Assembly (NCBI RefSeq): GCF_023822065.1
Contig: NZ_CP084931.1
Location: forward strand, 62,001-126,000
Direction: 5' to 3'
Source: Sphingomonas morindae
Lineage (GTDB): Bacteria > Pseudomonadota > Alphaproteobacteria > Sphingomonadales > Sphingomonadaceae
Length of the DNA stretch: 64,000 nt
Position 1 is the stretch's first letter, and every line of letters starts with the position of its first letter. Both the position numbers and the translations under genes were made by a program. Shown here piece after piece: positions 8,432-37,593 of this stretch. A model generated the notes under the pieces. It was not told the origin of the DNA. It saw only the letters and a program-made list of their open reading frames with translations, and did no database searches.

Positions 8432-8471
8432 GTGACAATCGTAACCCGGCGCGCCGGGGCTGAAACCATGC
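8432..8471 (+). promoter_or_regulatory. vir-box-like site upstream of tssB, with second half-site 21 bp downstream
   Basis: GTGACAATCGTAAC at 8432-8445 matches the Agrobacterium vir-box consensus RTTDCAWWTGHAAY at 12 of 14 positions. A second half-site, TGAAAC at 8461-8466, lies two helical turns (21 bp) downstream of GTAAC. The whole 40-bp block matches the block at 12704-12743 at 33 of 40 positions. It sits about 90-120 nt before the tssB start in an otherwise gene-free 237-nt region. Probable binding site of the VirG-like regulator encoded at 25238-25990; the DNA match is observed, the regulator assignment is inferred. Confidence 0.6.
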
Positions 8472-8555
8472 TGAAGCCCGGCACCACCACAAGGCCTGCA
8501 CGACCGCAGGCGGACCCCGACCCGGACCGGTTCCGCCCAGGAAAGGGCCAAGCAC

Positions 8556-9086
8556 ATGGTATCGGCGAAAGGCGGACAGCGCTTCATCAAGGAAAATCGG
8601 GCGCCGCGTGTCCATATTGAATATGAGGTGGAAACCTATGGTTCCCGCCAGAAGATCGAGATCCCCTTCGTCATGGGGGTGATGTCGGACCTTTCGGGCA
8701 AGAGCCTGGTCGAGAAGAAGCCGCACGAGGAGCGCGATTTTCTCGAGTTCGACATGGACAATTTCGAGGAGCGGATGGAGCGGATCGCGCCGCGCGCCGC
8801 CTTCACCGTGGAGAACAGCCTGACCGGCGAGGGGCGGCTCGGCATCGATCTGAGCTTCCGCACGCTCGAGGATTTCAACCCCGGCCAGGTGGCGCGCGCG
8901 GTGCCGGCGCTCGCCGCGCTGCTGGACGCGCGCGAGCAGCTCAACGATCTCATGCTCTACATGGACGGCAAGGCCGGCGCGCAGGAATTGCTGGATCGCG
9001 TGCTGAAGGATCCCGCGCTGATGCAGGCGCTCGCCGCCACCCGCCCCGCGTCCGAAACGGATGCGTCCGACCCGGCCGAGCGCTGA
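8556..9086 (+). CDS. tssB: T6SS contractile sheath small subunit TssB (VipA)
   Basis: 176-residue small subunit of the type VI secretion sheath; it assembles with TssC into the contractile tube around Hcp. Typical N-terminus (RVHIEYEVETYGS, IPFVMGVMSDLSG), the conserved block FDMDNFEERM with the preceding RDFLEF, and the C-terminal helix (LDAREQLNDLMLYMDGK) are all present. Length is normal for the family. First gene of the tssB-tssC-hcp unit, with a vir-box-like site upstream; tssC follows after 25 nt. Confidence 0.97.
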   Translation: MVSAKGGQRFIKENRAPRVHIEYEVETYGSRQKIEIPFVMGVMSDLSGKSLVEKKPHEERDFLEFDMDNFEERMERIAPRAAFTVENSLTGEGRLGIDLSFRTLEDFNPGQVARAVPALAALLDAREQLNDLMLYMDGKAGAQELLDRVLKDPALMQALAATRPASETDASDPAER

Positions 9087-9111
9087 CGCGCCCCCGCCCC
9101 GGAGACAGAGA

Positions 9112-10605
9112 ATGGCTCAAGACACTTTCCAGCCCGCGACGGCCGAAACCGCCGCCTCCACGGTCGAGCTGGATGATTTCACGCTGCTGCTCCAGAAGCA
9201 GTTTAAGCCCGGCAGCGAGGCCAAGCGCGCGCGCATCGAACAGGCGGTGCAGACGCTGGCGCATCAGGCGCTCGCCGATGCCGCCGTCATCGGCGAGGAT
9301 GTGTTCCTCACCGTCGACGCGCTCAAGGCCGCGATCGATCGCAAACTCACCGAGCAGATCAACCGCATCATCCACCATCCCGAATTCCAGGCGCTGGAAT
9401 CGGCGTGGCGCGGGCTCTGGTATCTGGTCGGCAACACCTCGACGGGCAAGGATCTAAAGATCCGGGTGCTCAACATCTCCAAGGAGGAGACGCGCCGGCA
9501 GCTGCGCCAGTATCGCGACGCCGCCTGGGATCAGAGCCCCCTGTTCAAGCGCATCTACGAGGCGGAGTTCGGCCAGCTCGGGGGCCAGCCCTATGGCGCC
9601 ATCGTGTGCGACTATTATTTCGATCATAGCGGCCCCGATATCGAGGTGATGAAGGGCCTGGCGAAGATCGGCGCGGCGGCGCACTGCCCGGTGCTCGCCG
9701 CCGCCGGACCGCGCCTGATCGGCATGGACAGCTGGCGCGAGCTTTCCAACCCGCGCGACATCGCCAAGCAGTTCGACGCGACGGACTATATGGCCTGGCG
9801 CTCGTTCCGCGCCTCGAACGACAGCCGCTATCTGGCGCTCACCCTGCCGCGCTTCCTGGGCCGGCCGCTCTATGGCGCGGCGACCGATCCGGTGCCCGAA
9901 TTCGCCTTCGAGGAAGAGGTGGCGGGCGATCACGACCAGTATCTCTGGCTCAACGCCGCCTATGCGCTGGCGGTGCGCATCACCGAGGCCTTCAAGACCT
10001 ATGGCTGGTGCACGCGCATCCGCGGCGTGGAATCGGGCGGCACGGTCGAGGATCTGCCGACCGCGCTCTTCCCCACCGACGAGGGCGGCGTGGACGCCAA
10101 ATGCCCGACCGAGATCGCGATTTCGGATCGTCGCGAGGCGGAGCTGTCCAAGGCGGGGCTGATGGCGCTGGTGCATCGCAAGAACACCGATCACGCCACC
10201 TTCATCGGCGCGCAGACGCTGCACCAGCCCAAGGCCTATGAGGATGCCGACGCGACCGCCAGCGCCAGCCTCTCGGCGCGGCTGCCCTATATCTTCGCCA
10301 GCTGCCGCTTCGCCCATTATCTGAAGTGCATGGTGCGCGACTGGATAGGCTCCTCGCGCGAGGCGCCGCAGCTTCAGGCGGATCTGCAAAGCTGGATCAT
10401 GCAATATGTGGATGTCCAGCCGGACTTCTCGACCGAGGAGACCAAGGCGCGCAAGCCGCTGAAGCAGGCCGCGGTGGAAGTGATCCCCGATCCGGAAAAT
10501 CCCGGCTTCTATCGCGGGCTGTTCCGGATGATCCCCCATTATCAGCTCGAAGGCATGGACGTGTCGCTGAGCATGGTCTCGCGGCTGCCGCGCGCCGAGA
10601 AGTAA
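9112..10605 (+). CDS. tssC: T6SS contractile sheath large subunit TssC (VipB)
   Basis: 497-residue large sheath subunit. Characteristic blocks are seen: ESAWRGLWYLVGN and LKIRVLNISKEE near the N-terminus, YGAIVCDYYFDH, ISDRREAELSKAGLMAL and KCMVRDWIG toward the C-terminus. Start at ATG 9112, a few bases after GGAGACAGAGA; the same frame is open to 9061 but that part encodes only proline/arginine-rich readthrough. With TssB it forms the sheath that contracts to drive the Hcp-VgrG needle and is later disassembled by TssH (ClpV). Full length, no frameshift. Confidence 0.97.
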   Translation: MAQDTFQPATAETAASTVELDDFTLLLQKQFKPGSEAKRARIEQAVQTLAHQALADAAVIGEDVFLTVDALKAAIDRKLTEQINRIIHHPEFQALESAWRGLWYLVGNTSTGKDLKIRVLNISKEETRRQLRQYRDAAWDQSPLFKRIYEAEFGQLGGQPYGAIVCDYYFDHSGPDIEVMKGLAKIGAAAHCPVLAAAGPRLIGMDSWRELSNPRDIAKQFDATDYMAWRSFRASNDSRYLALTLPRFLGRPLYGAATDPVPEFAFEEEVAGDHDQYLWLNAAYALAVRITEAFKTYGWCTRIRGVESGGTVEDLPTALFPTDEGGVDAKCPTEIAISDRREAELSKAGLMALVHRKNTDHATFIGAQTLHQPKAYEDADATASASLSARLPYIFASCRFAHYLKCMVRDWIGSSREAPQLQADLQSWIMQYVDVQPDFSTEETKARKPLKQAAVEVIPDPENPGFYRGLFRMIPHYQLEGMDVSLSMVSRLPRAEK

Positions 10606-10630
10606 TTCAGCCCGTCCTTCCCGAACTTTC

Positions 10631-10649
10631 TATCCTTTGTTGAGCGGAG
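10631..10649 (+). promoter_or_regulatory. hcp leader element shared with the response-regulator leader
   Basis: TATCCTTTGTTG followed by AGCGGAG, 6 nt before the hcp start codon; the last part contains the probable Shine-Dalgarno. The same 12-mer, then three extra bases, then the same AGCGGAG occur on the minus strand at 26026-26005 in the leader of the VirG-like gene. The position in the untranslated leader suggests a common post-transcriptional control, but no regulator is known. Confidence 0.4.
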
Positions 10650-10655
10650 TGCATC

Positions 10656-11144
10656 ATGGCCGTCGATATGTTCCTGAAGCTTGAAGGCGTGAATGGTGAA
10701 TCGGAAGATGCCAAGCACAGCAAAGAAATCGATATCATCGGCTGGAGCTGGGGCATGAGCAACACCGGCACCGCCCATCTCGGCGGCGGCGCCGGCACCG
10801 GCAAGGCCAATTTCCAGGATCTGTCGGTCACCAAGTTCGTCGATCTGGCGAGCACGCCGATCCTGCTGAGCTGCGCCCAGGGCAAGCATTTCTCCACGGC
10901 GACGCTGACGGTGCGCAAGGCCGGCGGCGACAATCCGCTGGAATATCTCGTCATCACCATGACCGAGGTAATGGTGAGCAATGTCCAGCACGGCGGCAGC
11001 AGCGGCGACGAGCGGACCACCGAGGTCGTCTCGCTCAATTTCGAGAAGATCGACGTCAAATATACCGAACAGTCGAAGACCGGCAGCTCGGGCGGCGGCA
11101 GCCCCGATTTCAAGTGGGACATTCTGAAGAACCAGGCGGCCTGA
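10656..11144 (+). CDS. hcp: T6SS inner tube protein Hcp (TssD)
   Basis: 162-residue Hcp, the hexameric ring that stacks into the inner needle tube and is itself secreted. Typical features: MAVDMFLKLEGVNGES at the N-terminus, the IIGWSWGMSN loop, VTKFVDLASTPIL, and FEKIDVKYTEQ near the C-terminus. No C-terminal toxin extension, so it is a structural Hcp and not an evolved one. Third gene of the tssB unit, 50 nt after tssC, and followed by a strong GC hairpin that may terminate part of transcription and keep hcp mRNA abundant. Confidence 0.97.
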   Translation: MAVDMFLKLEGVNGESEDAKHSKEIDIIGWSWGMSNTGTAHLGGGAGTGKANFQDLSVTKFVDLASTPILLSCAQGKHFSTATLTVRKAGGDNPLEYLVITMTEVMVSNVQHGGSSGDERTTEVVSLNFEKIDVKYTEQSKTGSSGGGSPDFKWDILKNQAA

Positions 11145-11157
11145 GCCGCGGCCGCGC

Positions 11158-11191: not shown

Positions 11192-11228
11192 CGGCTGACC
11201 CGCGACCCTCATGCCCCGGAGACCGATG

Positions 11229-12707
11229 ATGGCCAGCGCGGTGCCGTTCATCCTGTTCGAAAGCAGCCTGGGTCGGATCGTTCGCAGCATGCAGCCCGAG
11301 GGCCTGCACGCCTCGCTCAACGATATTCCGATCGTCTTCGAGGTCACCATGGCGGCGCCGCTGCGCCAGCGCTTCCGCCAGAGCCCCGTGCTCAACAATG
11401 ATGTCCAGCTGAAGCTCGCCGCCGCCATACGCGACGTGATCCAGCGCGAGATCTTCCCGTTCATCAACGATAACAGCCGCGCCGATCCGGCCCTGCGGGC
11501 GCGTGTGGCAGGCGTGTTCCAGCGCGCCACGCCGCGCCTTCAGGCGATCGTGGTCGAGGCGCTTGGCGGCGCGCTGCGCGGCAGCGCCGCCTGGCGCGAC
11601 TATCGCCTGGACAGCGGCAAGGAAATCGCGCGCATCGGCCTGACGCTCACCTTCGTCGCGGTCGCCGCCGGGCTGGCGCCGCCCACCTCGGGCGTGTCGA
11701 TCGCGTTTCTCATCGTCAGCCTGGTGCGCGGCCTGACCGACGCGACCAAGAAGTTCAGCGAGGCCTATCGCACCGCGGAGGAAAGCCGCGCGCGGCTGCT
11801 GGCCGAGATCCAGCGGCTGCGCGCCGCCTATGCCAAGGGCCAAACGACCGGCCGCGCCGCGCAGCTGGGCGGGGCGCTGGCCCATGCCCTCACGCTCGGC
11901 AAGATGGCGGCCAGCTTCAACAGCGATCCGCTGCCGGGCTTCACGCGGATCAAGACCGAGCTGAACGCTTATAAGGGCAAGCTCGGCCATCTCAACGCGC
12001 GCGCCGAGCAGCTTGGCCGCCGGCTCTACGAACTGCTCGATCTGATCGAGCAATATGAGGCGGAGCAGGGCGACGCGGGCCAGCGGCCGCGCCTCGCCCG
12101 GCTGCGGCGCGATGTCACGGGCCTGCTGGAAGATGGCGTGCGATCGCCCGGCTTTCGCGGCCGCGCCACCATTTCCGGCGCCTGGACCCGCTGCCAGACG
12201 GGGCTGGCCGAGCTGGCCCTTGTGGAAAATCAGTTCAAGGCGCTCAAGGCGCTCGAAACCCGCGAGGGCGCGATCGTCCGGGCCGATCGCGTGGTGACGC
12301 TGCTCACCAATCTCGCGGTCACGCTCGCGGGCTATAACGCGCCGCTCGGGCTTCAGGATCGATCGGGCGCGGCGATCGAGGCGGCGTTGAAGCTGGCGCC
12401 CGGCCATCCCGGCCCGGCGGCGGGCGGCACCGCGCTCGGCTTGGGTTTCATGCGCCAGTTCATGAGCCTGTTCAAGGACAGCCACGCGCTCGCCAAGGAG
12501 CTGGGCCTGGTCGGCAAGAAGCCCGATGCGGCGGACCAGCTGCTGGCCGAGCTGGAAGCGGAGTTCCGCCGCCCGCCCGCGCCCGAGGCGGCGCCGCGCC
12601 TGCCCAATCTCAGCTTTCCCGCCGCGCTCGAGATCGTCGTGCCCGGCGCGCCGCCGATCCGGATGCCGCCGCCCACGCGGCCGCCGCCGCCGGTGCCGAC
12701 TTCATGA
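11229..12707 (+). CDS. Unknown T6SS-linked protein with a membrane-inserting segment (492 aa)
   Basis: I do not recognise this family. Directly downstream of hcp, ending just before the tagJ unit. Start at ATG 11229, 7 nt after GGAG; ATG at 11226 is equally possible. Mostly helical and alanine-rich. One long hydrophobic stretch at about residues 134-165 (IARIGLTLTFVAVAAGLAPP and GVSIAFLIVSLV) looks like a membrane hairpin. A coiled-coil-like region follows (AYRTAEESRARLLAEIQRLR). A third, shorter hydrophobic region lies near 375-400, and the C-terminus is a proline-rich tail. There is no signal peptide, catalytic motif or recognisable immunity gene nearby. It could be a structural accessory, a chaperone-bound effector that inserts into membranes, or a regulator. 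Position after hcp in the main sheath operon favours a T6SS role; this is inference. Confidence 0.75.
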   Translation: MASAVPFILFESSLGRIVRSMQPEGLHASLNDIPIVFEVTMAAPLRQRFRQSPVLNNDVQLKLAAAIRDVIQREIFPFINDNSRADPALRARVAGVFQRATPRLQAIVVEALGGALRGSAAWRDYRLDSGKEIARIGLTLTFVAVAAGLAPPTSGVSIAFLIVSLVRGLTDATKKFSEAYRTAEESRARLLAEIQRLRAAYAKGQTTGRAAQLGGALAHALTLGKMAASFNSDPLPGFTRIKTELNAYKGKLGHLNARAEQLGRRLYELLDLIEQYEAEQGDAGQRPRLARLRRDVTGLLEDGVRSPGFRGRATISGAWTRCQTGLAELALVENQFKALKALETREGAIVRADRVVTLLTNLAVTLAGYNAPLGLQDRSGAAIEAALKLAPGHPGPAAGGTALGLGFMRQFMSLFKDSHALAKELGLVGKKPDAADQLLAELEAEFRRPPAPEAAPRLPNLSFPAALEIVVPGAPPIRMPPPTRPPPPVPTS

Positions 12708-12743
12708 CAATGGTAACGCGCCGCGCCGCTCCTGAAACCATGC
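12704..12743 (+). promoter_or_regulatory. vir-box-like site upstream of tagJ
   Basis: ATGACAATGGTAAC at 12704-12717 matches RTTDCAWWTGHAAY at 12 of 14 positions, with a TGAAAC half-site 21 bp downstream (12733-12738). The arrangement is identical to that at 8432-8471. It overlaps the stop codon of the preceding gene and lies about 70-110 nt before the tagJ start, so it probably drives a second T6SS transcript from tagJ to ppkA. Confidence 0.6.
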
Positions 12744-12813: not shown

Positions 12814-13614
12814 ATGACGATGGTCGACACCGAGGAGACGCGGATCGCGGCCGATCTCGCCGCGGGCGAGATTGCGGAGGCGCGAGCCGGGCTCGTCGCG
12901 ACGCTGCGCGCCCGGCCGGACGATCAGCGCGCGCGCATGGCGCTGTTCCAGCTGCTCTGCGTCGCGGGCGCCTGGGACAAGGCCGAGGCCCAGCTGCGCG
13001 CGCTGGCGGCGCTGTCGCCCGAGGCGCGGATGCTGGAGATGGCCTATGGCCAGGCGCTGGCCGCCGAGGCCGCGCGCGCCCGGGCCTGCGCCGGCGCCGC
13101 GCCCGCGCCGCTGCTGGCCGAGGCGCCCGCCTGGGCCGCGACGCTTGCCGCCACCATCGGGCCCGACGCCGATCCCGCGCGCCGCGCCGAGGCGCTCGAT
13201 GCCTGTCCCGACACCGCCGGGACGCTCAACGGCGCGCCCTTCGCCTATCTCTTCGATGCGGACACGCGCTTCGGCCCGATGCTGGAGGCGATCGTGGCCG
13301 GGCGCTGGGGGCTGCTGCCCTTCGCCGCGCTGGAAGCGATCGACATTGAGGGCCCGCGCGACATGCGCGATCTCGTCTGGCTGCCCGCCTCGCTGCGGCT
13401 GCGCGCGGGCCCGACGCTCGCCGCGCTGCTGCCCGTGCGCTACCCGGGTACCGAGGCCGAGCCGGACGATGCGCTGCGCCTCGCGCGGCGCACGGAATGG
13501 CGCGGCGCGGATGGTCAGGTGCGCGGTGTCGGCCAGCGCAGCTGGACGATCAGCACGGGCGAGGATTTCGGCCTGCTCGACATTCGCCAGATCCGCTTCG
13601 CCGATCCGTCATGA
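12814..13614 (+). CDS. tagJ: T6SS accessory protein TagJ (ImpE/SciE family)
   Basis: 266-residue ImpE-family protein. The tetratricopeptide-like N-terminal half (RMALFQLLCVAGAWDKAEAQ) and the C-terminal SciE domain (RDLVWLPASLRLRAGP, LLPVRYPGTE, EDFGLLDIRQIRF) are typical. In systems that have it, TagJ binds the N-terminus of TssB and helps ClpV act on the sheath; that function is family knowledge. First gene of the second plus-strand unit; its stop overlaps the tssE start as ATGA. Confidence 0.92.
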   Translation: MTMVDTEETRIAADLAAGEIAEARAGLVATLRARPDDQRARMALFQLLCVAGAWDKAEAQLRALAALSPEARMLEMAYGQALAAEAARARACAGAAPAPLLAEAPAWAATLAATIGPDADPARRAEALDACPDTAGTLNGAPFAYLFDADTRFGPMLEAIVAGRWGLLPFAALEAIDIEGPRDMRDLVWLPASLRLRAGPTLAALLPVRYPGTEAEPDDALRLARRTEWRGADGQVRGVGQRSWTISTGEDFGLLDIRQIRFADPS

Positions 13615-14135
13615 GCCGGATCAACCCCAGCCTGTTCGACAAGCTCGTCGCCGATCTGGAGCTTGACGGGCTGCGTGACGACGATGCCGAGATCACCGGG
13701 CTGGACCGCGCGCCGCGCTTCTACACCGTGCCCCGGCTCGAGCGCTTCAGCGAGGCCGCGCTGCGCGCCACGGTTCTGCGCGAGCTGAACTGGCTGTTCA
13801 ACACCACCAGCCTCGCCTCGGCGCAGGATCTGGATCAGGCGCCCGAGGTGGCGCGGTCGGTGCTTAATTATGGCCTCGCCGATCTCACCGGAAAGCTGCT
13901 GACGCGCCAGTCCGTCCAGGCGCGTGCGCGCGACATGCGCGAGGCGATCCTGCGGTTCGAGCCGCGCGTGGAACGCCGCAGCCTCGATGTCGACGTGGAT
14001 GGCGGACACGCGCGCGCCAACAGCATCGCCTTCACCATTCGCGGCGATCTCACCACGGCGGTGCGGGCGCTGCCGGTCGAGTTCCGCACCGATGTCGAGA
14101 TCGACACCGGCGCGGCGACGATCTGGGGCGCCTGA
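13611..14135 (+). CDS. tssE: T6SS baseplate subunit TssE (gp25-like)
   Basis: 174-residue baseplate wedge protein related to phage gp25. Seen: N-terminal SLFDKLV, RELNWLFNTTSL and VLNYGLADLTG (the conserved core), RDMREAILRFEPRV and the C-terminal IRGDL strand. The start ATG overlaps the tagJ stop and the stop overlaps the tssF start (TGATG), so the three are translationally coupled. It joins TssF, TssG and TssK in the baseplate from which the sheath grows. Confidence 0.95.
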   Translation: MSRINPSLFDKLVADLELDGLRDDDAEITGLDRAPRFYTVPRLERFSEAALRATVLRELNWLFNTTSLASAQDLDQAPEVARSVLNYGLADLTGKLLTRQSVQARARDMREAILRFEPRVERRSLDVDVDGGHARANSIAFTIRGDLTTAVRALPVEFRTDVEIDTGAATIWGA

Positions 14136-19643: not shown

Positions 19644-19656
19644 GCGGAGCCGGGCG

Positions 19657-26231: not shown

Positions 26232-26356
26232 TTGGAAGACCGTGCCCGACATTGGGCTGAAATCTCCGCCACCGCATGGTGCGCCCGATTGGTTTCGGGA
26301 CAGATCGACATGGGCTGGATAATGCTTGCTCTCTTCGCCGGTCCGACTGGCGGTAT

Positions 26357-29058: not shown

Positions 29059-29061
29059 GTG

Positions 29062-32000
29062 ATGCAACGGATTGTGCGCGGCTGGTGGACGCTGGCGGGC
29101 ACGAGCGCGATGGTGATGGGGCTGGTGCTCGCGGTCGGCCTGCCGGCGCTGGTGCCCGCCCTGCGCGCGCCCTGGGTGCGGCTGGCGCTGCTGGCGCTGG
29201 TGGCGCTCGGCTTCGCGCTGGCGGCGGGCTATCGCATCTGGACGGCCCGGCGCCGCGCGGCGCGCCTCGCCGACGCGCTGGCCCCGGCCGACACGGGGGA
29301 CGCCGCCGCGGACGAGACGCGCGCGGTGACGGAGCGGATGCGCGCCGCGCTGGCCAGGCTTCGCGCGGACGGCCGCGGACGCGCCTATCTCTATGCCAAG
29401 CCCTGGTATCTGCTGATCGGGCCGCCCGGCGCGGGCAAGACCACGGCGCTGCTCCAGTCCGGGCTGCGCTTTCCCTGGAGCGACGGCGCCGTGCCCGGCC
29501 TGGGCGGCACGCGCGCGCTCGATGTGTGGCTTGGCGAGGATGCGGTGCTGGTCGATACCGCCGGCCGCTACACTACGCAGGATTCGGACGCCGCCGTCGA
29601 TGCCGCCGGATGGCAGGCCTTTCTGCGACTGCTGCGTCGCACGCGCCCGCTCCAGCCGATCAACGGCATCCTCGTCACGCTCGGGATCGACATGCTGACC
29701 GGGGCGAGCCGGGCCGAGCTTGACGCCCATGCCGGCGCGGTGCGCCGCCGGCTCGACGAGCTGCGCCGGACGCTGCGCGTCTCCGCGCCCGTCTACATCC
29801 TCTTCGCCAAGACCGACCTGCTCGCCGGCTTCACCGAATTCTTCGCCGATCTTGACGCGGAGGGGCGGCGCGCCGTGCTGGGCGCGACGCTGCCGCTCGC
29901 CGGCGCGGGCGATCTCGCCTCGGTCATGGCCGGCTTCGACACGATGATCGAGGCGGTGACGGCGCGCAGCGCGCGGCGGCTGCAGGACGAGGCCGACCAG
30001 CGTCGCCGCAGCCTCATCCTCGGCTTTCCGCCGCAGCTGATCGCGCTGCGCGCGCGTGTCGCGCGCTTCGTCGAGGGCGTGCTGCCCGCCACCGCTTCGG
30101 ACGGGCACAGGCTGCGCGGCCTCTATTTCGCCAGCGGCGTGCAGGCCGGCGCGCCGCTGGATCGCGTGCTGAGCGCGATGGCCGAGCTGTACGAGCCCGA
30201 TCGCGGCGCGCCGGCCCCGGGATCGGGCCGCGCCTATTTCCTCAACCGGCTGCTGACCGAACTGGTCATCCCCGAAGCCGGCCTGGCCAGCGCCGATCCG
30301 GCGCTGCGCCGCCGCCGCCGGCTGCAGCTGGGCGGCGGCGTGGCGGCGCTGGCGCTGCTCGGCCTCGCCGTCACCGGGCTGTGGGCGCGCAGCTTCGCCG
30401 CCAACAGCGCATTGCAGACACGCCTGACCGGCCAGGGGCAGGAGGCGATCGCGCTGGATCAGGCGGCGGGGATCGATCTCGCGCGGGTCGGGCCCGGCGA
30501 TCCCGATCTCCAGCCCGCGCTGCCGCTGCTGGAGCGCCTGCGCACGCTGGCGCGCGGCTATGCCGATCAGCAGCAGGGGCCGCCGCCGCGCGCGATGCGC
30601 TTCGGCCTGTTCCAGGCGGGCCATGCCGATGCCGCGCGCCAGGCCTATCTGGATGCGCTCCAGCGTGTCCTGCTGCCCCGGCTGCTCTTGCGGCTGGAAG
30701 CGGTGATGCGCGCCGAGGCGGCGCAGCCCGAACGGCTCTACGAACCGCTCAAGGCCTATCTGATGCTCGGCGGCTATGGCCGGCTGGATCGCGACGCGGT
30801 GCGCGCCTGGGTGGTGGAGGATTGGCGAACCGCCGCGCTGCCGGGCGCCGATCGCGCCGATCTGCGCGACCGGCTGGCGCGGCATCTCGACGCGCTGCTC
30901 GCCGATCCCGATCTCGGCCGGGTCTGGCCGGGGCGGCGCGCGCCGCTCGACGGCCGGCTGATCGCGGACAGCCGCGCGGCGGTGCAGACGCTCTCGCTCG
31001 GCGATCGCGCCTATGCCGTGCTGCGCCAGCGCGCCGCCGCCTCCGGCGCGGCGGACTGGCGCGCCGATCGGCTGCTCGCCTCGGGCGATGCGCGCGCCTT
31101 TGCCAATGGCGCGGCGGTGCTGCAGCTGCGCGTGCCCTGGTTCTTCACGCGGCAAGGCTATGCCCGCGCCTATCGTCCCGGCCTGCTCCATGTCGAGGCC
31201 GAGCTGGACCGCAATCTCTGGGTGCTCGGGCCGGATGCCGAGCGCGCGACGATCCGCGCGCAGCTGCCCGCCATGCGCGCGGCGGTGGCGCAGGATTATG
31301 CGCGCGACTATATGCAGGCGTGGGACGCCGTGGTCGCCACGCCGCAGCCGGGGCGCTATTTCGCGGACCGCGCCGGGCTGGCCGCCCTGGTCCGCACGCC
31401 CTCGCCACTTGCCGCGCTGCTGCGCGAGGTGCGGCGCAACACCCAGCTCGACCAGACCGAGGCGGCGGGCGGGGCGGCGGGCGATGCCCGCGACGCGGCG
31501 GCGCAGATCGCCGCCCATTTCGCCGATCTCGATCGCTTCGCCGGGGCGCCGGTGGACGGGCTGGTCGGCGCGATCCGCCAGGCCGCCGCCGCCACCACCG
31601 CCACCGCCGTGCCGGGCGCGGCGCTGGATGGCGGCGCGGTGCAGGGCCGGCTCGCCGGCGCGCTCGGCGATCTTTCGGCCGCCGGGCTCGACGCCCCCGC
31701 CGCGCTCCAGCCCTTTGTCGCCGGCGCGCTGCGCGGCGGCCAGGGCGCGGCGGCGCGCACCGCCGACGCCACGCTCAACCAGGCCTATGCCGCGACCGTC
31801 CGCCCCGCCTGCCTCGATGCGCGCCGGGGCGGCTATCCCTTTGTGCGCGAGGCGCGGCAGGATGCCGGCCTGGCCGATGTCCAGCGCGTCTGGGGCGCCA
31901 ATGGCGCGGTCGACGGCTTTGTCCGCGATCGGCTGGCGCCGCTGCTGGTGACGGGCACGCGGACCTGGCGCTGGCGCGCGGATGATCCGGTGGCGGCGCG

Positions 32001-32448
32001 CTTCGCCCCGGCCAGCGCTATGGCCTTTCAGAAGGCGGCCGCGCTGCGCGATCTGCTGGCGGGCGGCGTGACGCTGAGCGTCACTTTGGCCGGGCTGGGC
32101 CCTGGCCTCGACGCGGTCGAGCTCGCCTCGGGCGGCACCAGCTATCGGCTCGACCGCAAGGATGCCACGCCGCACGTGCTGATCTGGGCGCCGACCGCGC
32201 TGCCCGAGGCGCATGTCGCGCTGCTCGGCGGCGGCGCGCGGGTGCTGCGGCGCGACGCGGCGACGGGGCCCTGGGCGCTTTTCCACCTGCTCGACGCCGC
32301 CCATCTCCAGCCGGCCGGGCCGGGCGCGATGCTCGCCAGCTTTGGCGAGGGCGATCGCACGGCGCGGCTGCTGCTCCGCCTCTCGGGCCCCGGCGATGCG
32401 CTCGCGCCCGACGGCCCGTTCGCGATCCGCTGTCCGGAGCGGCTATGA
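29062..32448 (+). CDS. tssM: T6SS membrane-complex protein TssM (IcmF/VasK)
   Basis: 1128-residue inner-membrane core protein. Two N-terminal membrane segments (about 12-30 and 37-55), a cytoplasmic GTPase-like domain with intact Walker A GPPGAGKTTAL near residue 119 and DTAGRY, a third membrane segment at about 425-443, then a large periplasmic part ending in the C-terminal TssM domain (FAPASAMAFQKAAALRDL, GPWALFHLLD). Start at ATG 29062 or GTG 29059, both after AGGAG. The stop overlaps tagF as ATGA. No TssJ lipoprotein is encoded here, so how TssM reaches the outer membrane is not evident. Confidence 0.96.
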   Translation: MQRIVRGWWTLAGTSAMVMGLVLAVGLPALVPALRAPWVRLALLALVALGFALAAGYRIWTARRRAARLADALAPADTGDAAADETRAVTERMRAALARLRADGRGRAYLYAKPWYLLIGPPGAGKTTALLQSGLRFPWSDGAVPGLGGTRALDVWLGEDAVLVDTAGRYTTQDSDAAVDAAGWQAFLRLLRRTRPLQPINGILVTLGIDMLTGASRAELDAHAGAVRRRLDELRRTLRVSAPVYILFAKTDLLAGFTEFFADLDAEGRRAVLGATLPLAGAGDLASVMAGFDTMIEAVTARSARRLQDEADQRRRSLILGFPPQLIALRARVARFVEGVLPATASDGHRLRGLYFASGVQAGAPLDRVLSAMAELYEPDRGAPAPGSGRAYFLNRLLTELVIPEAGLASADPALRRRRRLQLGGGVAALALLGLAVTGLWARSFAANSALQTRLTGQGQEAIALDQAAGIDLARVGPGDPDLQPALPLLERLRTLARGYADQQQGPPPRAMRFGLFQAGHADAARQAYLDALQRVLLPRLLLRLEAVMRAEAAQPERLYEPLKAYLMLGGYGRLDRDAVRAWVVEDWRTAALPGADRADLRDRLARHLDALLADPDLGRVWPGRRAPLDGRLIADSRAAVQTLSLGDRAYAVLRQRAAASGAADWRADRLLASGDARAFANGAAVLQLRVPWFFTRQGYARAYRPGLLHVEAELDRNLWVLGPDAERATIRAQLPAMRAAVAQDYARDYMQAWDAVVATPQPGRYFADRAGLAALVRTPSPLAALLREVRRNTQLDQTEAAGGAAGDARDAAAQIAAHFADLDRFAGAPVDGLVGAIRQAAAATTATAVPGAALDGGAVQGRLAGALGDLSAAGLDAPAALQPFVAGALRGGQGAAARTADATLNQAYAATVRPACLDARRGGYPFVREARQDAGLADVQRVWGANGAVDGFVRDRLAPLLVTGTRTWRWRADDPVAARFAPASAMAFQKAAALRDLLAGGVTLSVTLAGLGPGLDAVELASGGTSYRLDRKDATPHVLIWAPTALPEAHVALLGGGARVLRRDAATGPWALFHLLDAAHLQPAGPGAMLASFGEGDRTARLLLRLSGPGDALAPDGPFAIRCPERL

Positions 32449-32954
32449 CCGGCGCGCACGCCTTTCTCGGCGGCAAGCTCCCCGCTCATGGCGACTTTGT
32501 GTGGCGGATGCCGCCCGGCCAGCGCCGCGCCTGGGAGGCGCGCTGCCTCGCCACGATGGAGCGGGCGGCAGCGGCGGGTGCCGCAGGCGCGGCCTGGCTC
32601 TCGGCCCAGCCCGCGCAGGGCTTTCTGCTCGCGCCCGGCCTGGACGAGCCCTTCTGGCAGGCGGGGGCGGCGGCACCCTCGCAGGATCGCGCCGGACGGC
32701 TCTTCCCGCTCGTGCTGGGCTGGCGGCGAGCGGCGCTGTGGGACGAGGCGACGGCGCTAGCGCTGGCGGAGCGCGCGCTTCAGGGGCTGCGCCACGCGAT
32801 CGTGGCGGGCGGCGCGGCGGACGCGGTGCTCGCCGCGCTGGACGCGGAAGCGGCGACGACGCCCGAACGGATTGAAGGACTTCTTGTCCGCGACTGGGAC
32901 GCCGCGTGGCGCCCGCCGGCCGCGGCGACCAGACTATGCGGAAGGACGCGCTGA
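32445..32954 (+). CDS. tagF: T6SS post-translational repressor TagF (ImpM family)
   Basis: 169-residue single-domain TagF/DUF2094 protein, recognised by FLGGKLPAHGDFVWRMPPG at the N-terminus and WLSAQPAQGFLLAPGL. In Pseudomonas and Agrobacterium TagF restrains secretion independently of or together with the threonine-phosphorylation pathway, binding Fha in the latter (family knowledge). Here it is a stand-alone protein, not fused to PppA as in some relatives, but the next gene is pppA and overlaps it as TGATG. Confidence 0.92.
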   Translation: MTGAHAFLGGKLPAHGDFVWRMPPGQRRAWEARCLATMERAAAAGAAGAAWLSAQPAQGFLLAPGLDEPFWQAGAAAPSQDRAGRLFPLVLGWRRAALWDEATALALAERALQGLRHAIVAGGAADAVLAALDAEAATTPERIEGLLVRDWDAAWRPPAAATRLCGRTR

Positions 32955-33739
32955 TGGGACTGATGCTTCGCTACGAGCAGGGCGTGCGCACGCATGTCGG
33001 CCGGGTGCGCAAGATCAACGAGGATTCGGTGCTCGCCCGGCCGCGCGACGGCCTGTGGGCGATCGCCGATGGCATGGGCGGCCATGCGCGCGGCCAATGG
33101 GCGTCGGCGACGATCGTCCGCGCGCTCGACGGCGTCGTCCTGCCCGATGCGTTCGACGACGCGGTCGCGGCGGTGACGGCGACGCTCGAGGCCGCCAATG
33201 CGGAGATCTGCCGCGCGGGCCATGAGGCGGGCGGGGCGATCGGCTCGACCGTGGTCGCGCTGCTGATCCGCGACGACCGCTACGCCGTGCTCTGGGCCGG
33301 AGATAGCCGCGCCTATCGCTGCCGCGACCGGCTGCTGGCCGGGCTCACCACCGATCATTCGCAGGTGGAGCAGATGGTCGCGTCCGGCCTGCTCGAGCGC
33401 GACGAGGCGGACAATCATCCCATGGCCCATGTGCTGTCGCGCGCGGTCGGCGTGCGCGAGACGCTGCTGCTGGACCGGATCGAGGGCGATGTCGCGGCCG
33501 GCGACGTCTTCCTGCTGTGCAGCGACGGGCTGAGCCGGCTCGTCTCTCCGCTCGAGATCGAGACCCGGCTCATCGATACGCCGCCCGCCATTGTGGCGGG
33601 CGCGCTGATCGCCTGCGCGCTCGAGCGCGGCGCGCCGGACAATGTCAGCGTCGCCGTGATCGGATGCGACGCGACCACGCTGGTCGAGCTCGGCCAGCGG
33701 CCGGCGGGCGAGGGCAAAGGCGAACGCGCCACATGGTAG
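32954..33739 (+). CDS. pppA: PP2C-type Ser/Thr phosphatase PppA
   Basis: 261-residue PPM/PP2C phosphatase that reverses PpkA phosphorylation. Metal-binding and catalytic motifs: RKINEDSVL, IADGMGGHARG, GSTVVALL, WAGDSRAYR, LCSDGLSRLV and APDNVSVAVI. Start ATG 32954, 9 nt after GGAAGG and overlapping the tagF stop; an earlier ATG at 32936 is less favoured. Last gene of the tssK unit, followed by a hairpin before the convergent tagH gene. Confidence 0.95.
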   Translation: MGLMLRYEQGVRTHVGRVRKINEDSVLARPRDGLWAIADGMGGHARGQWASATIVRALDGVVLPDAFDDAVAAVTATLEAANAEICRAGHEAGGAIGSTVVALLIRDDRYAVLWAGDSRAYRCRDRLLAGLTTDHSQVEQMVASGLLERDEADNHPMAHVLSRAVGVRETLLLDRIEGDVAAGDVFLLCSDGLSRLVSPLEIETRLIDTPPAIVAGALIACALERGAPDNVSVAVIGCDATTLVELGQRPAGEGKGERATW

Positions 33740-33807: not shown

Positions 33808-33829
33808 CTGTATCTGGCGGAGTGAGCGC

Positions 33830-35128
33830 TCAGCCCGGCGGCGGGCGGCGGCCCTTCATCTCGGCCACCTGATCCTCATAGGCGCGGCGGAACTCGCGGG
33901 CGAACAGATCCATGAACGCCTCGTCCGCACCGCGCACCACGCCCTCGAACTCGGCTTCATAGGCGCGCCACAAGGCGGCGTCGGCCGCGCCGGGCCGCAG
34001 CCGCGCGCGCCAGCCGCCGGCCGGCTGGCGCGCGCGGATCGCGGCCGGAGAGAACCGCGCCAGCGTCTCCGCCAGCGCGCCGCGCATCGCGCCGAGCGTC
34101 GCCATCTGGTGCGCCTGGAGATCCTGGAACGCATCCTCCACCGCGCGCGCGGCGGGCATGAAGCCGGGTTCGGCCGGGGCGAGCAGCTGCCGCAAAGCGC
34201 GCTCGGGCGCGCGCACGAACTTCAGCGGATTATTGCCCTCCAGTTCGAGGCTGGTGCCCTGCAGGCCGAGCTGCGCCTTGGCGCGCGCGCGGGCATCCAC
34301 CATCAGCACCAGGCCGGACACGAGCTGGCGCAGCAGCGCGCCGGCGGTGGCGAGCAGCGGTGCCGGTGGCGTGTCCAGCGCCTCCGGCGTCAGGCCCAGC
34401 CCGGCGACGAACTGCGCCCAGCCGCCCTCCGGCGGCGCAGCGGCGGCGGGGGAAGCGGCGGGGGCGGCCGGACGCGGCGCGGCCGGCGCTTCGGGTGCGA
34501 GCGGCCGGTCGGCGGCGAGGGCTGCCGGCGGCGCGCTGAAACCGCCTTGCGACCAGTCGATGTCGCTCTCGCGGGCAAGCTGGCCCCAGAGATCGACGGC
34601 CGAAGGCGGCGCCGCGGCGGCGGGCGCGCTCGACCAGGCCGAGGGCAGCGCGAGCGGCGCCGGCGTATCCCAGCCGCCTCCATCCGCGACCGGCGGGGTG
34701 AGCGGCGGCGCCGCCGCGGGCGAGGTCGGCGTGTCCGGCCACGCGCTCCAGGCGGCGGGCGCCGGCTCCGCTTCCGATCCCGCTTCCGGAGGCGCGGTCG
34801 CGGCGGCATCCGGCGCCGACAGGCTGGCGTGGATCGCATAGGCGCCGATGTCCAGCCGATCGCCGTCGCGGATCGGATGCGGCGCGGTCAGCCGCGTCTC
34901 GGCGCCGTTGACGAAGGTGCCGTTGGTGCTGCGATCCACCAGCAGATAGGTTCCGTCGCGATAGCTGATCTCGCAATGCCGCGCCGAAACATGGTTGCGC
35001 GGATCGGGCAGGCACCAATCGGCATGGGTGGAGCGTCCGATCAGCGCGCCGTGGCGATCGAGCCGGAAGCAGGCGGGCTGGCCATTGTCGAGCGTGTCGC
35101 GGCCGGCGATGGTGAGCGTGAGGGTCAT
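33830..35128 (-). CDS. tagH: T6SS FHA-domain protein TagH (Fha)
   Basis: 432-residue scaffold protein. FHA domain at about residues 5-100 with the phosphothreonine-binding set GRS (31-33), Ser48, Arg50-His51 and NGT..N (69-74). A long Ala/Pro-rich linker (about 105-240) follows, and then the C-terminal T6SS Fha domain, ending with FMDLFAREFRRAYEDQV. Binds threonine-phosphorylated partners made by PpkA and licenses secretion. ATG 35128 overlaps the stop of the preceding small gene; third gene of the vgrG operon. Confidence 0.93.
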   Translation of the reverse strand: MTLTLTIAGRDTLDNGQPACFRLDRHGALIGRSTHADWCLPDPRNHVSARHCEISYRDGTYLLVDRSTNGTFVNGAETRLTAPHPIRDGDRLDIGAYAIHASLSAPDAAATAPPEAGSEAEPAPAAWSAWPDTPTSPAAAPPLTPPVADGGGWDTPAPLALPSAWSSAPAAAAPPSAVDLWGQLARESDIDWSQGGFSAPPAALAADRPLAPEAPAAPRPAAPAASPAAAAPPEGGWAQFVAGLGLTPEALDTPPAPLLATAGALLRQLVSGLVLMVDARARAKAQLGLQGTSLELEGNNPLKFVRAPERALRQLLAPAEPGFMPAARAVEDAFQDLQAHQMATLGAMRGALAETLARFSPAAIRARQPAGGWRARLRPGAADAALWRAYEAEFEGVVRGADEAFMDLFAREFRRAYEDQVAEMKGRRPPPG

Positions 35129-35664
35129 GGCTGATGTCCCTGGCGGGCGAGGAGAAGACCGGCGTCGAGCGCGGCCGCCCGCGCGGCCGGCGGATCGGCC
35201 TGTTCGGCGGCGGCGGCGAGCACCGCGCCAGCCACGAAACGTCCGGCGGTGGCGCGCGGCGCGGCGAAGGGGGGCGCCCCGTCCGGCGCCAGCGAGCCGC
35301 CGGCGGTGAAGGCGGCGAAGGCGCACAGGCGCGCGGGGCTGGCGGCGGGGCGCGCCGCCGCCACCGCGCCGGCGGCGCGGCGATGGGCTTCCGATGGATC
35401 GCGCAGCCACGCGGTCACCGCCGCCAGCAGCGCCGGATCGGGGGCGCGGCCCTGTGACGCCACCATGCGCGCGGCCCAGGCGACCGCCTCGAACCGGGGC
35501 AGCGCCTGGGCGAGAAAGCGGATCGCGTCGCGATCACGCCCCGCCGCGCGCAGCGCCTCGAAGAAGCGGGGCGGCGGCGCCCGCTCGTCCGGCTGGGGCG
35601 GCCAGCCGAGCAGCGCCGTGATCTGGCCGGCCTCGGTCCAGATGGTGGCGGGCCAGTCGCTCAC
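35125..35664 (-). CDS. Small T6SS-associated protein, DUF6931-like
   Basis: 179-residue protein between vgrG and tagH, overlapping both as ATGA. Visible pattern: FFEALRAAGRDRDAIRFLAQ then ALPRFEAVAWAARMV, like the 'ALPRREAVWWA' type found in small T6SS-linked proteins assigned to DUF6931. Two helical halves, alanine-rich, no signal peptide or membrane segment. Function unknown; the conserved position next to vgrG or fha suggests a VgrG loading or Fha-related role. The family call is from memory of the motif and should be treated as moderate. Confidence 0.65.
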   Translation of the reverse strand: MSDWPATIWTEAGQITALLGWPPQPDERAPPPRFFEALRAAGRDRDAIRFLAQALPRFEAVAWAARMVASQGRAPDPALLAAVTAWLRDPSEAHRRAAGAVAAARPAASPARLCAFAAFTAGGSLAPDGAPPFAAPRATAGRFVAGAVLAAAAEQADPPAARAAALDAGLLLARQGHQP

Positions 35665-37559
35665 AGGATGGTCAGCGCGCCGCCGAGCAGGTTCAGCATC
35701 GCCTCCCCCGCCAGCGTGGCGACGCTGCCGTTCAGCGTCATCACCGTCTCGGCCTCGGCGGTGATGGTGAGGCCGTTCATCGCCAGCCCCATCTCGGTGA
35801 GCGAAATCACCGAAGGCCCGACCGTGAGCGTGATGCCGAGCGGCGTGATGGTGAGGCTGTTGGGGCCGACACGCAGGCTGATGCTCTTCGCCGCCTCAAT
35901 CGTGGCGGCGCCCTGCGCCACCGTCAGCCGATGATCGCCGGTGGTGACGCGGGTCTCGTCGTCGCGGTGCACCGTGGCGGTGCGGTCGCGTCCGATGCGC
36001 GCGGCATCGTCGAGCAGCACCTCCACCAGCCGATCGCGCTGGGCGCGCAGATAGACCTGCTCGGCGCCACCGCGATCCTCGAACATCAGCTCGTTATAGC
36101 CCGGTCCGGCGGGGGTGGCGGCGGCGCCGGCATAGCTGCCCGAGGCGCCGATGCTGCGCGAGCGGAACAGCGCACGGGTGCGGTGCGCGGGCAGATCATA
36201 GGGGTGGAGATGCTCCGAATTATAGACGCGGCCGGTGACGATCGGGCGATCCGGATTGCCATCGAGAAAGGAGACGATCACCTCCTGCCCGGTGCGCGGC
36301 AGCGCGACATGGCCGAAGCCCGATCCCGCCGAGCCCTGGGCGACGCGCAGCCAGCAGGATCGCGCCGCGAGCGGCGCCTCGTCGGGCCGGCCCCAGAGAA
36401 AGCGCACGCGGACCCGGCCGAGCGGATCGGCCGCGCCGTCATCGGCGCCGCCCGCCATGATGATCGCCGTCTCCGGCCCGGCGCTGGGGCGCGGCGTGCG
36501 GTGCGGCGCGCGCCACTTGGTTTCGGCGGGCACCGCCTCGATCGCGACGCGCCGCGCCTCGGCGGGATTGCCCGAGCGATAGGGTTCGGCGTCGAGGCTG
36601 TAGCGGAGCGACGTGATCAGAAACGTCTCGCCCCGGCCGAAGGCGGCATCCGAATCGAGCCGGAAACGGCCGCCGCAGTGCAGCCCGATGGCATCGCCGG
36701 CGCCGCTGTAGCGGCGCTGCTCGGCACGCGCCGCCTCCAGCCGCACCCGCGCCCAGTGCGCCGCCAGCGCCTCGTCCACGAAATCGCCGCTATACTCGTG
36801 ATCGTCCTGGCCGTCGGCGGCGTTGCGCGCGGCGCTCTCGGCGGTGCCGTGGCGCGTCTCGCTGGTCTGATAGTCGAAGCTCTGGAGCAGGACGCGCGTC
36901 TCGCCGCCACTCGTCACCGCTTCCTGCCATGTCCACAGGCTCTCGGCGAGGCCGCCGCTGCGGCCCGACCAGTCCGGACGGAGCTTGATCGTCTCATAGC
37001 CGGGCGCGGGCTGGTGCGCGCCGGGGCCATCGGCCAGCACCAGCACATGCTCGTCCCGCTCATGGCGGAAATAATAGTAAATGCCTTCGCGCTCCATCAA
37101 TCGGGAGAGGAAGGCGAAGTCGCTTTCACGATATTGGGTGCAATAAGGCCAGGGCTGATAGCTGTTCTGGAGCTTGCCATAGTCAACCCGGCGGCTTTGC
37201 CCTTCCAGCACGACGCGCGCAATTTCGACCACGGTCTTCTGCTCGAATATCCGATAGGCACGATTATGCTCCAGCAGATGCAGCCAGGGCCGCAGGATGA
37301 GGCGGTAGTGGAAGCCCTGGTCTTCCTGCCGCAGATAGAGCGCTTCGATCAGCAGCGCGTGGAAGAAGCGCACCGAGCGCTCCAGCTCGAACACCTCGAT
37401 CGAAGCGGGCTTGCCGAGATGGGGCAGGAAATCCACCCGGTCCTCCAGCACGACCTCGGCCTCGATCGTGAACAGGCCGCTCAGCCTTTCGGTCGCCTCG
37501 AAGTGGATCAGCCGGATCGGGGCGCCGGCGTCGAGCGTGATTTCGGCCTGGCGCTTCAC
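35661..37559 (-). CDS. vgrG: T6SS spike protein VgrG (TssI)
   Basis: 632-residue needle-tip trimer subunit. N-terminal gp27-like part (LSGLFTIEAEVVLE, LRPWLHLLEHNRAYRIFEQ, YRESDFAFLSRLMEREGIYY), gp5 OB-fold (GRVRVRFLWGRPDE, WLRVAQGSAGSGFG, GQEVIVSFLDGNPDRPIVTG) and a C-terminal beta-helix that simply ends (no toxin extension). Start is GTG 37559 with GGGAGGG 8 nt upstream; no ATG fits. It begins the minus-strand operon vgrG, DUF6931-like, tagH. No PAAR or adaptor gene is adjacent. The vir-box-like site at 37580-37593 lies only 20 nt before the start codon. Confidence 0.96.
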   Translation of the reverse strand: MKRQAEITLDAGAPIRLIHFEATERLSGLFTIEAEVVLEDRVDFLPHLGKPASIEVFELERSVRFFHALLIEALYLRQEDQGFHYRLILRPWLHLLEHNRAYRIFEQKTVVEIARVVLEGQSRRVDYGKLQNSYQPWPYCTQYRESDFAFLSRLMEREGIYYYFRHERDEHVLVLADGPGAHQPAPGYETIKLRPDWSGRSGGLAESLWTWQEAVTSGGETRVLLQSFDYQTSETRHGTAESAARNAADGQDDHEYSGDFVDEALAAHWARVRLEAARAEQRRYSGAGDAIGLHCGGRFRLDSDAAFGRGETFLITSLRYSLDAEPYRSGNPAEARRVAIEAVPAETKWRAPHRTPRPSAGPETAIIMAGGADDGAADPLGRVRVRFLWGRPDEAPLAARSCWLRVAQGSAGSGFGHVALPRTGQEVIVSFLDGNPDRPIVTGRVYNSEHLHPYDLPAHRTRALFRSRSIGASGSYAGAAATPAGPGYNELMFEDRGGAEQVYLRAQRDRLVEVLLDDAARIGRDRTATVHRDDETRVTTGDHRLTVAQGAATIEAAKSISLRVGPNSLTITPLGITLTVGPSVISLTEMGLAMNGLTITAEAETVMTLNGSVATLAGEAMLNLLGGALTIL

Positions 37560-37579
37560 GCGGCGCGCCCTCCCGCCGG

Positions 37580-37593
37580 GTTACATTTGTCGC
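37580..37593. promoter_or_regulatory. vir-box-like site between vgrG and tssA
   Basis: GTTACATTTGTCGC; on the minus strand GCGACAAATGTAAC matches RTTDCAWWTGHAAY at 12 of 14 positions. It shares GTTAC-N-W-TTGTC-R-Y with the sites at 8432 and 12704 (read on their minus strand). It is 77 nt before tssA and 20 nt before the vgrG start, so it may activate one gene and block or activate the other. Confidence 0.55.

What the first reader, a model, noticed from the sequence alone, without database searches (positions are those of the whole stretch)
8432..37593. Four vir-box-like sites mark the T6SS promoters and point to a VirG-like regulon
Near-palindromic 14-mers occur at 8432, 12704, 26218 and 37580. 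Three share GTTAC-N-W-TTGTC-R-Y and all four fit the Agrobacterium vir-box consensus RTTDCAWWTGHAAY at 12-13 of 14 positions. Each sits ahead of a different T6SS unit (tssB, tagJ, tssK/regulator, vgrG/tssA). A VirG-like regulator with a VirA-like kinase is encoded in the middle of the locus. A T6SS run as a self-contained VirA/VirG-type regulon would be new to me.
Basis: partly seen in the sequence, partly recalled or inferred. Interest (0 to 1): 0.78.

Follow-up and report, generated by a model that had tools for sequence, protein, structure and literature searches.

The report
T6SS locus with VirG-type control boxes
In an alphaproteobacterium a bacterial "spear gun" (type VI secretion system) appears to be switched as a unit by its own built-in relative of the VirA/VirG sensor-regulator pair that Agrobacterium uses to start gene transfer to plants, through matching DNA boxes in front of the gun's operons.

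Summary
Four 14-bp near-palindromes (8432, 12704, 26218, 37580) lie in the four control regions of the T6SS locus and fit the vir box at 12-13 of 14. A matrix trained on two congeners ranks these four first (21-23 bits; next 12.4; best of 400 kb sampled from the same genome 15.0). They are conserved islands in diverged upstream regions, recur in most held-out T6SS loci that carry the VirG-like regulator, and no site of 17 bits or more occurs in 14 T6SS loci without it. Eight VirG/VirA-like cassettes with no T6SS in the stretch read also hold such sites (6 at 17 bits or more; 0.46 expected), so the motif follows the regulator. The regulator lies in the VirG clade; the kinase is VirA-like (DAHL). 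A MauG/CCP-type di-heme peroxidase gene, not mentioned in the finding, sits between them. Best reading: a dedicated VirG-type regulator controls the whole T6SS and, in this genus, itself. It is not canonical VirA/VirG (curated cut-offs missed); binding and signal are untested. RR+ T6SSs are one clade, so that correlation alone is a single event. New variant of a known kind.

The parts
8432..8445 (+). Box 1 GTGACAATCGTAAC, 110 nt before tssB
   Evidence: 24.5 bits; a counterpart at 98-117 nt in all 11 RR+ loci, scores 7-11 of 11; congener alignment
8461..8477 (+). Second conserved element TGAAACCATGCTGAAGC, 21 and 32 bp after GTAAC: TGAAAC/TGAAGC repeats in helical phase
   Evidence: conserved in G000, G123, G043; 34-mer spanning both elements exact at only two places in the genome, here and at 12705
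12704..12717 (+). Box 2 ATGACAATGGTAAC, 96 nt before tagJ; overlaps the stop codon of the upstream ORF
   Evidence: 23.8 bits; conserved in G123 and G043, 0 of 6 held-out loci; G057 has a 21.8-bit box 96 nt before tssE instead
12733..12738 (+). Second element TGAAAC at the same 21-bp spacing
26218..26231 (.). Box 3 GTTACAACTGAAAC, between the divergent regulator operon and tssK operon: 104 nt before the longest rr ORF (26113), 227 nt before its ATG at 25990, 128 nt before the conserved TssK start at 26360
   Evidence: 22.6 bits; 13/14 vir box; 14/14 in G123 and 13/14 in G043
26247..26263 (+). Second conserved element CGACATTGGGCTGAAAT, about 32 bp (three turns) from box 3
   Evidence: alignment
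37580..37593 (-). Box 4 GCGACAAATGTAAC (read on minus), between divergent vgrG (20 nt) and tssA (76 nt)
   Evidence: 22.2 bits; upstream of tssA in 7 of 7 held-out loci at shuffle p<=0.02
38771..38784 (.). Fifth conserved palindrome GTTTCACCTGAAAC, between the 3' ends of tssA and an MFS gene; role unclear (operator or terminator-like)
   Evidence: only 10.5 bits with the matrix
25241..25990 (-). rr: OmpR-family, VirG-clade response regulator (longest ORF extends to 26113)
   Evidence: Pfam; NCBIfam VirG best hit 265 bits, cut-off 344; tree
24309..25241 (-). MauG/CCP-type di-heme cytochrome c peroxidase with two CxxCH motifs
   Evidence: Pfam PF03150; translation; same trio elsewhere
21916..24312 (-). 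hk: VirA-like sensor kinase with DAHL domain
   Evidence: Pfam DAHL, HisKA, HATPase_c; NCBIfam VirA-like 606.7 bits, cut-off 647
8556..11144 (+). tssB, tssC, hcp
   Evidence: hcp by Pfam; tssB/tssC by alignment with annotated tssB/tssC
12814..21909 (+). tagJ, tssE, tssF, tssG, tssH and Ser/Thr kinase genes
   Evidence: Pfam
26276..33739 (+). tssK, tssL, tssM, tagF, PP2C phosphatase genes
   Evidence: Pfam
33830..37559 (-). vgrG, DUF6931 gene, tagH (FHA) genes
   Evidence: Pfam
37670..38683 (+). tssA
   Evidence: Pfam ImpA_N

Best explanation
The T6SS locus is a locus-centred regulon of its own two-component system. The VirA-like kinase senses a periplasmic or membrane cue with its DAHL and linker domains, perhaps together with the co-encoded di-heme peroxidase (inferred), and phosphorylates the VirG-clade response regulator (inferred from family). 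The regulator binds vir-box-like sites (RYKWCAnnnGTAAC, in three of the regions with further TGAAAC-type repeats 2-3 helical turns away) roughly 75-135 nt upstream of tssB, tagJ, tssK, tssA and, in this genus, farther upstream of its own gene, and most likely activates them, so that the T6SS operons are switched together. Shown here: genes, sites, conservation, distances, co-occurrence with the regulator family. Inferred: operons, binding, activation, signal.
For: Genome-wide concentration. Conserved islands in congeners whose upstream regions are 32-44% identical overall. Held-out test: matrix from three congeners, seven RR+ loci of other genera versus 14 RR- loci (7 for tssK): Mann-Whitney p 8.6e-6 (tssB), 1.7e-5 (tssA), 1.1e-3 (tssK), 2.8e-3 (vgrG); 0.12-0.97 for the internal genes tssH, hcp, stpk, tssM, pp2c. 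The best tssB-upstream match lies at 98-117 nt in 11 of 11 RR+ loci and in 0 of 33 others (3 of the 33, G286, G360 and G190, were not tested for the regulator). Motif follows the regulator: 8 VirG/VirA-like cassettes with no T6SS hit in the stretch read, 107 kb, 6 sites >=17 bits (0.46 expected) and 5 >=19 (0.14), against 1 and 0 in 36 loci of other OmpR-family regulators (518 kb; 3.0 and 1.0 expected) and 0 and 0 in 14 RR- T6SS loci (592 kb). VirG clade 100/97. In genus g91 the regulator (70-76% identical) is in the 7 of 44 tested T6SS genomes that have the closest TssC; the other 37 have no match above 47% at E<=1e-55.
Against: No binding or expression data. RR+ T6SSs are one clade in the TssC tree (100/100), so regulator and boxes may have come as one event. 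The tagJ box is seen only in the three congeners (0 of 6 held-out loci); an rr box in 3 of 7 (p<=0.02); tssK boxes differ in orientation between loci and G057's is 26 nt from the start. Four of 11 RR+ tssB sites (G335, G890, G1021, G1054) score 7-8 of 11, inside the RR- range of 6-8. The vgrG box lies only 14-20 nt before the start codon, awkward for an activator of vgrG. G890's locus-proximal regulator copy has no peroxidase or kinase hit beside it and G900 shows no peroxidase. Of the 8 T6SS-free cassettes two (the 6-kb G639 contig and G732) have no site >=15. In three cassettes near distant T6SSs the T6SS units mostly lack boxes.
Confidence: 0.8

Rival explanations
1. The boxes are bound by a different DNA-binding protein (another OmpR-family regulator or an alternative sigma factor) that controls this T6SS clade; the co-located VirG-like regulator has another target.
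For: The association of boxes and regulator within T6SSs is phylogenetically a single event; GTAAC-N16-GAAAC has a two-block look; distant T6SSs near such a cassette mostly lack boxes.
Against: The same motif is enriched beside VirG-clade cassettes without T6SS and not beside other OmpR-family regulators; repeats spaced 21 and 32 bp suit a helix-phased operator; the block spacing is not kept in the tssK and vgrG regions.
Confidence: 0.12
2. The regulator binds the boxes but represses, or mainly autoregulates; vgrG is repressed through its start-proximal box.
For: Box 14-20 nt before the vgrG start in six of seven held-out loci.
Against: Other distances (mostly 76-135 nt) suit upstream activation; VirG activates through vir boxes upstream of the transcription start (PMC4086400, passages).
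Confidence: 0.1
3. Chance AT-rich patches in a 72% G+C sequence, kept by shared ancestry.
For: The vir-box consensus alone gives 64 sites at >=12/14 in the genome.
Against: Exact form only in this locus; flanks diverged, boxes kept; no 17-bit site in 400 kb of the same genome.
Confidence: 0.02

Closest known systems
VirA/VirG-vir box regulon of Agrobacterium Ti/Ri plasmids (type IV secretion)
   Same: Response regulator in the same clade, DAHL-type VirA-like kinase, boxes fitting the vir-box pattern, boxes in front of several units of one secretion system.
   Different: Serves a T6SS, not a T4SS; di-heme peroxidase gene between regulator and kinase; below the curated VirG and VirA-like cut-offs; three boxes have the form RYGACA..GTAAC; signal unknown.
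VirA/VirG control of symbiotic T4SS in Mesorhizobium loti
   Same: VirA/VirG homologues with putative vir boxes upstream of virG/virB1 and virD4 (PMC4070662, passages).
   Different: T4SS again; flavonoid/NodD input proposed.
VirAG control of Burkholderia T6SS-1 / T6SS-5
   Same: A two-component system encoded within a T6SS cluster activates it (PMC6335564, PMC3795662, PMC4650826; passages).
   Different: Whether that VirG belongs to the Agrobacterium VirG clade was not tested; from recall it is of another regulator family. No vir box was mentioned in the passages read.
ChvG/ChvI control of the Agrobacterium T6SS
   Same: Two-component control of an alphaproteobacterial T6SS by a regulator binding its promoters (PMC12077199, PMC4086400; passages).
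   Different: Different pair, with a broader acid and cell-wall-stress response (PMC9731437, passages).
VirG-like / cytochrome c peroxidase / VirA-like cassettes on alphaproteobacterial plasmids (Bradyrhizobium, Skermanella, Indioceanicola, Sinorhizobium, Rhizobium sullae)
   Same: Same three genes and the same box type in most.
   Different: Beside oxidoreductase, P450 or transport genes.

Membership tests
VirG response regulators | OmpR-type receiver plus winged-helix domain | tested here: met
   PF00072 and PF00486
VirG response regulators | Groups with Ti/Ri VirG apart from other OmpR-family regulators | tested here: met
   Clade of 24 of 57 rows including pRi1724 and pTiS4 VirG, support 100/97; canonical VirG is in another sub-branch of it
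VirG response regulators | Passes the NCBIfam VirG equivalog cut-off | tested here: not met
   265 bits, cut-off 344, but best of 93 families (next OmpR 195); hence VirG-like, not VirG
VirG response regulators | Binds vir boxes when phosphorylated | not testable with these tools
   Only sequence evidence for sites
VirA sensor kinases | DAHL sensor domain with HisKA and HATPase | tested here: met
VirA sensor kinases | Passes NCBIfam VirA-like cut-off including C-terminal receiver | tested here: not met
   606.7 bits, cut-off 647; model positions 750-828 unmatched
VirA sensor kinases | Responds to plant phenolics and sugars | not testable with these tools
   none
Type VI secretion system | Core genes tssA, B, C, E, F, G, H, K, L, M, hcp, vgrG | tested here: met
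   12 of 13 core genes; tssJ was not specifically searched for
Vir-box regulon | Sites in front of the regulated units, rare elsewhere, conserved in orthologues | tested here: met
   genome outside the window scanned by exact patterns and by matrix only in a 400-kb sample; tagJ and rr boxes not conserved beyond the genus in most loci

The most novel reading that the evidence does not exclude
A three-part sensor module (VirG-type regulator, MauG/CCP-type di-heme peroxidase, VirA-type DAHL kinase), broader than Agrobacterium virulence, has been captured by T6SSs more than once, most fully by a sphingomonad T6SS; the peroxidase makes or reads the signal (an oxidised phenolic or peroxide), so the weapon is made in response to oxidant or plant/lignin-type phenolics.
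Probability: 0.3. Interest if true: 0.78.

Novelty: new variant of a known kind. Interest (0 to 1): 0.62.

Why it matters
It gives a concrete, testable control circuit for a T6SS in (probable) sphingomonads, and shows the VirA/VirG family as a portable module that may command different secretion machines. The recurrent peroxidase partner gene could explain what such kinases sense.

Tried and rejected
Vir-box consensus as sole evidence: rejected, 64 sites genome-wide. Loose GTTAC..TTGTC matches: rejected, fewer than the reversed control. Expectation that every VirG-like cassette has a box within 300 nt upstream of the regulator gene: not borne out (strong ones only in L137 and, for a VirG-like gene beside virB genes, L140; several generic loci also had 12-13/14); replaced by a neighbourhood test. 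My first reading of the 11 cassettes as 'without T6SS' was wrong: a recheck showed distant-type T6SS genes near three (G747, R. sullae, Skermanella); the count was redone on the other eight and held. In those three, of the T6SS genes tested only tssH had a box upstream, in G747 (17.2 bits, 82 nt, p 0.015) and Skermanella (15.7 bits, 64 nt, p 0.01). Fifth palindrome 38771 as an operator: unproven. Rfam (gathering threshold) and tRNA search of the window: nothing. The + strand ORF 33797-35134 was first used as a gene; Pfam shows tagH on the minus strand. A first regulator alignment had one row on the wrong strand and was redone. Paper searches for VirA-like/VirG-like systems or the peroxidase link listed nothing; one for VirG, T6SS, promoter, response regulator and alphaproteobacteria listed two papers, one read in passages. 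Rows dropped before counts: G987 from the held-out test (TssC identical to G900's); control loci under 55% G+C, under 15 kb, or with N runs, and L152; two short rows from the regulator tree.
Full report
OBSERVATION. The four 14-mers are present and fit the vir-box pattern at 12, 12, 13 and 12 of 14. The exact form shared by three of them occurs three times in the 4,237,930-base genome, all in this locus. YGWCAWNNGTAAC occurs four times in the genome with three in the T6SS locus; likewise 3 of 4 in congeners G043 and G123, 1 of 5 in G057, 0 of 4 in G335; in seven T6SS genomes whose T6SS stretch lacks the regulator there were 28 matches, none inside that stretch, and in four congeners without the T6SS 5, 0, 1 and 1 matches (with coordinates). 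The plain vir-box consensus is much less specific: 64 sites at >=12/14 genome-wide, five in the locus.

ANATOMY. Pfam, NCBIfam and alignment place tssB-tssC-hcp, tagJ-tssEFGH-Ser/Thr kinase, tssKLM-tagF-PP2C, vgrG-DUF6931-tagH (minus) and tssA around a minus-strand run of an OmpR-family regulator, a MauG/CCP-type di-heme peroxidase and a DAHL-domain kinase; operons are inferred from spacing and strand. NCBIfam ranks VirG first for the regulator (265 bits against 195 for OmpR; cut-off 344) and VirA-like first for the kinase (606.7; cut-off 647). The four boxes fall in the four control regions that together serve these units: before tssB, before tagJ, between rr and tssK, and between vgrG and tssA. 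The upstream regions of the internal genes tssH, hcp, stpk, tssM and pp2c carry none in this genome.

CONSERVATION. In the three congeners with the T6SS (3 of 10 genomes of the genus) the upstream regions are 32% (tssB), 34% (tagJ), 44% (tssA, which includes the start of vgrG) and 33% (tssK) identical by column, but the boxes and a second TGAAAC-type element stand out as conserved islands. The TGAAAC elements lie 21 bp (tssB, tagJ) or about 32 bp (tssK) from the box, i.e. in helical phase; in tssB a TGAAGC follows 11 bp later.

HELD-OUT TEST. A matrix from 12 sites of the three congeners was applied to seven loci of other genera with the regulator and 14 without (G987 left out as its TssC equals G900's). 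Upstream of tssB: RR+ median 14.9 bits, RR- 5.5, p 8.6e-6; six of seven had shuffle p<=0.035 and G335 0.065. tssA: 16.5 against 0.1, p 1.7e-5, seven of seven p<=0.02, at 81-135 nt. tssK: 14.0 against 2.8 (n 7 and 7), p 1.1e-3, seven of seven p<=0.015, at 114-135 nt except G057 (26 nt), orientation mixed. vgrG: six of seven p 0.005, G057 none. In G057 a 21.8-bit box lies 96 nt before tssE. Against the reading: tagJ 0 of 6; rr 3 of 7 at p<=0.02, at distances from extrapolated starts; among RR- loci single low p values occur (tagJ G038, tssE G394 and G943, tssA G084, stpk G134, tssM G338), and in RR+ loci stpk of G942 and G890. In a separate scan the best match before tssB lay 98-117 nt upstream in all 11 RR+ loci and in 0 of 33 others (three of them, G286, G360, G190, not tested for the regulator); four RR+ sites (G335 and G890 with 8, G1021 and G1054 with 7 of 11) are no stronger than the 6-8 found in the others, so position carries the signal there. 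By the vir-box pattern G335 and G890 have a better site at 177 nt.

THE MOTIF FOLLOWS THE REGULATOR. The same three genes occur together on plasmids of Bradyrhizobium barranii, Skermanella rosea, Indioceanicola profundi and Sinorhizobium sp. B11 and in other genomes. In 11 such cassettes the T6SS-trained matrix finds 13, 9 and 6 sites at >=15, 17 and 19 bits (expected 1.55, 0.55, 0.0), against 5, 1, 0 in 36 loci of other OmpR-family regulators (expected 8.75, 3.0, 1.0) and 6, 0, 0 in 14 RR- T6SS loci (expected 3.5, 0.5, 0.25). With the plain vir-box pattern at >=13/14: 6 observed, 0.48 expected; controls 0 and 2.8. A recheck showed that three of the 11 (G747, Rhizobium sullae, Skermanella) have distant-type T6SS genes 1-10 kb away. 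The eight without any T6SS hit in the stretch read still give 9, 6 and 5 sites (expected 1.48, 0.46, 0.14) and 5 vir boxes at >=13/14 (0.27); two of the eight (the 6-kb G639 contig and G732) have no site >=15. This is what separates a regulator site from a promoter habit of one T6SS clade. In the three cassettes near a T6SS, the T6SS units mostly lack boxes; tssH has one in G747 (17.2 bits, p 0.015) and Skermanella (15.7 bits, p 0.01), among 34 T6SS-gene upstream regions tested there, so this is a lead only.

EVOLUTION. In a 57-row tree five T6SS regulators fall in a 24-row clade (100/97) with VirG of pRi1724 and pTiS4 and the cassette regulators, apart from most other OmpR-family members; four T6SS regulators form one group (100/99) and G057's lies elsewhere with weak support. 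TssC of all 11 RR+ loci forms one clade (100/100), so within these T6SSs regulator and boxes may be one acquisition. T6SSs with a TssC of this kind are found in 21 of 397 family genomes sampled and 51 of 295 genomes of genus g91; of 44 of those 51 tested, 7 have the close regulator. The family is probably Sphingomonadaceae: tssBC DNA is 76% identical to a Sphingomonas parapaucimobilis plasmid T6SS, where no regulator of this kind is annotated in the 42 kb read (tssK-M not included).

MECHANISM. Best supported: the regulator binds these boxes and co-ordinates the T6SS units, most likely as activator; the kinase gives the input. Shown: sites, conservation, association. Inferred: phosphotransfer, binding, activation, role of the peroxidase. 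Awkward: the vgrG box 14-20 nt before the start codon, which suits control of the divergent tssA better than of vgrG.

KNOWN SYSTEMS. VirG binds a vir box upstream of vir genes (PMC4086400, passages); vir boxes with VirA/VirG are proposed to serve a T4SS in Mesorhizobium (PMC4070662, passages). The Agrobacterium T6SS is under ChvG/ChvI (PMC12077199, passages). Burkholderia VirAG, encoded in the T6SS cluster, controls that T6SS (PMC6335564, PMC3795662, PMC4650826, passages); its relation to the Agrobacterium VirG clade was not tested here. In the listings (searches listed nothing) no title or abstract start shown names a T6SS under VirG-clade control with vir boxes; the papers themselves were read only in the passages cited, and most subscription papers are not in that library.

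VERDICT. Real, well supported by comparison, mechanistically unproven: a VirG-like, not canonical VirG, regulon. New variant of a known kind.

Noticed in passing
24309-25241: A MauG/CCP-type di-heme peroxidase gene sits between regulator and kinase, and the trio recurs on plasmids of several orders; its role in signalling is unknown.
   Followed up: partly
L126 (G747), L314 (R. sullae), L315 (Skermanella): Three of 11 VirG-like/peroxidase/VirA-like cassettes found without regard to T6SS lie 1-10 kb from a distant-type T6SS cluster; two of these have a box upstream of tssH.
   Followed up: partly
38771-38784: Fifth conserved palindrome GTTTCACCTGAAAC near the 3' end of tssA in three congeners, facing different neighbours.
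   Followed up: partly
11211-12707: 498-aa ORF between hcp and tagJ without Pfam or NCBIfam match; 66% identical in G043, no hit in the G123 stretch; possible cargo gene.
   Followed up: no
window = G000:C2:62001-126000: The locus lies on a 552-kb contig separate from the 3.49-Mb contig C1, possibly a megaplasmid or second replicon.
   Followed up: no
L265, L278 (G890): Two copies of the VirG-like regulator on one contig: one about 14 kb from tssK without peroxidase or kinase hit beside it, one with the full trio about 265 kb from the first.
   Followed up: partly
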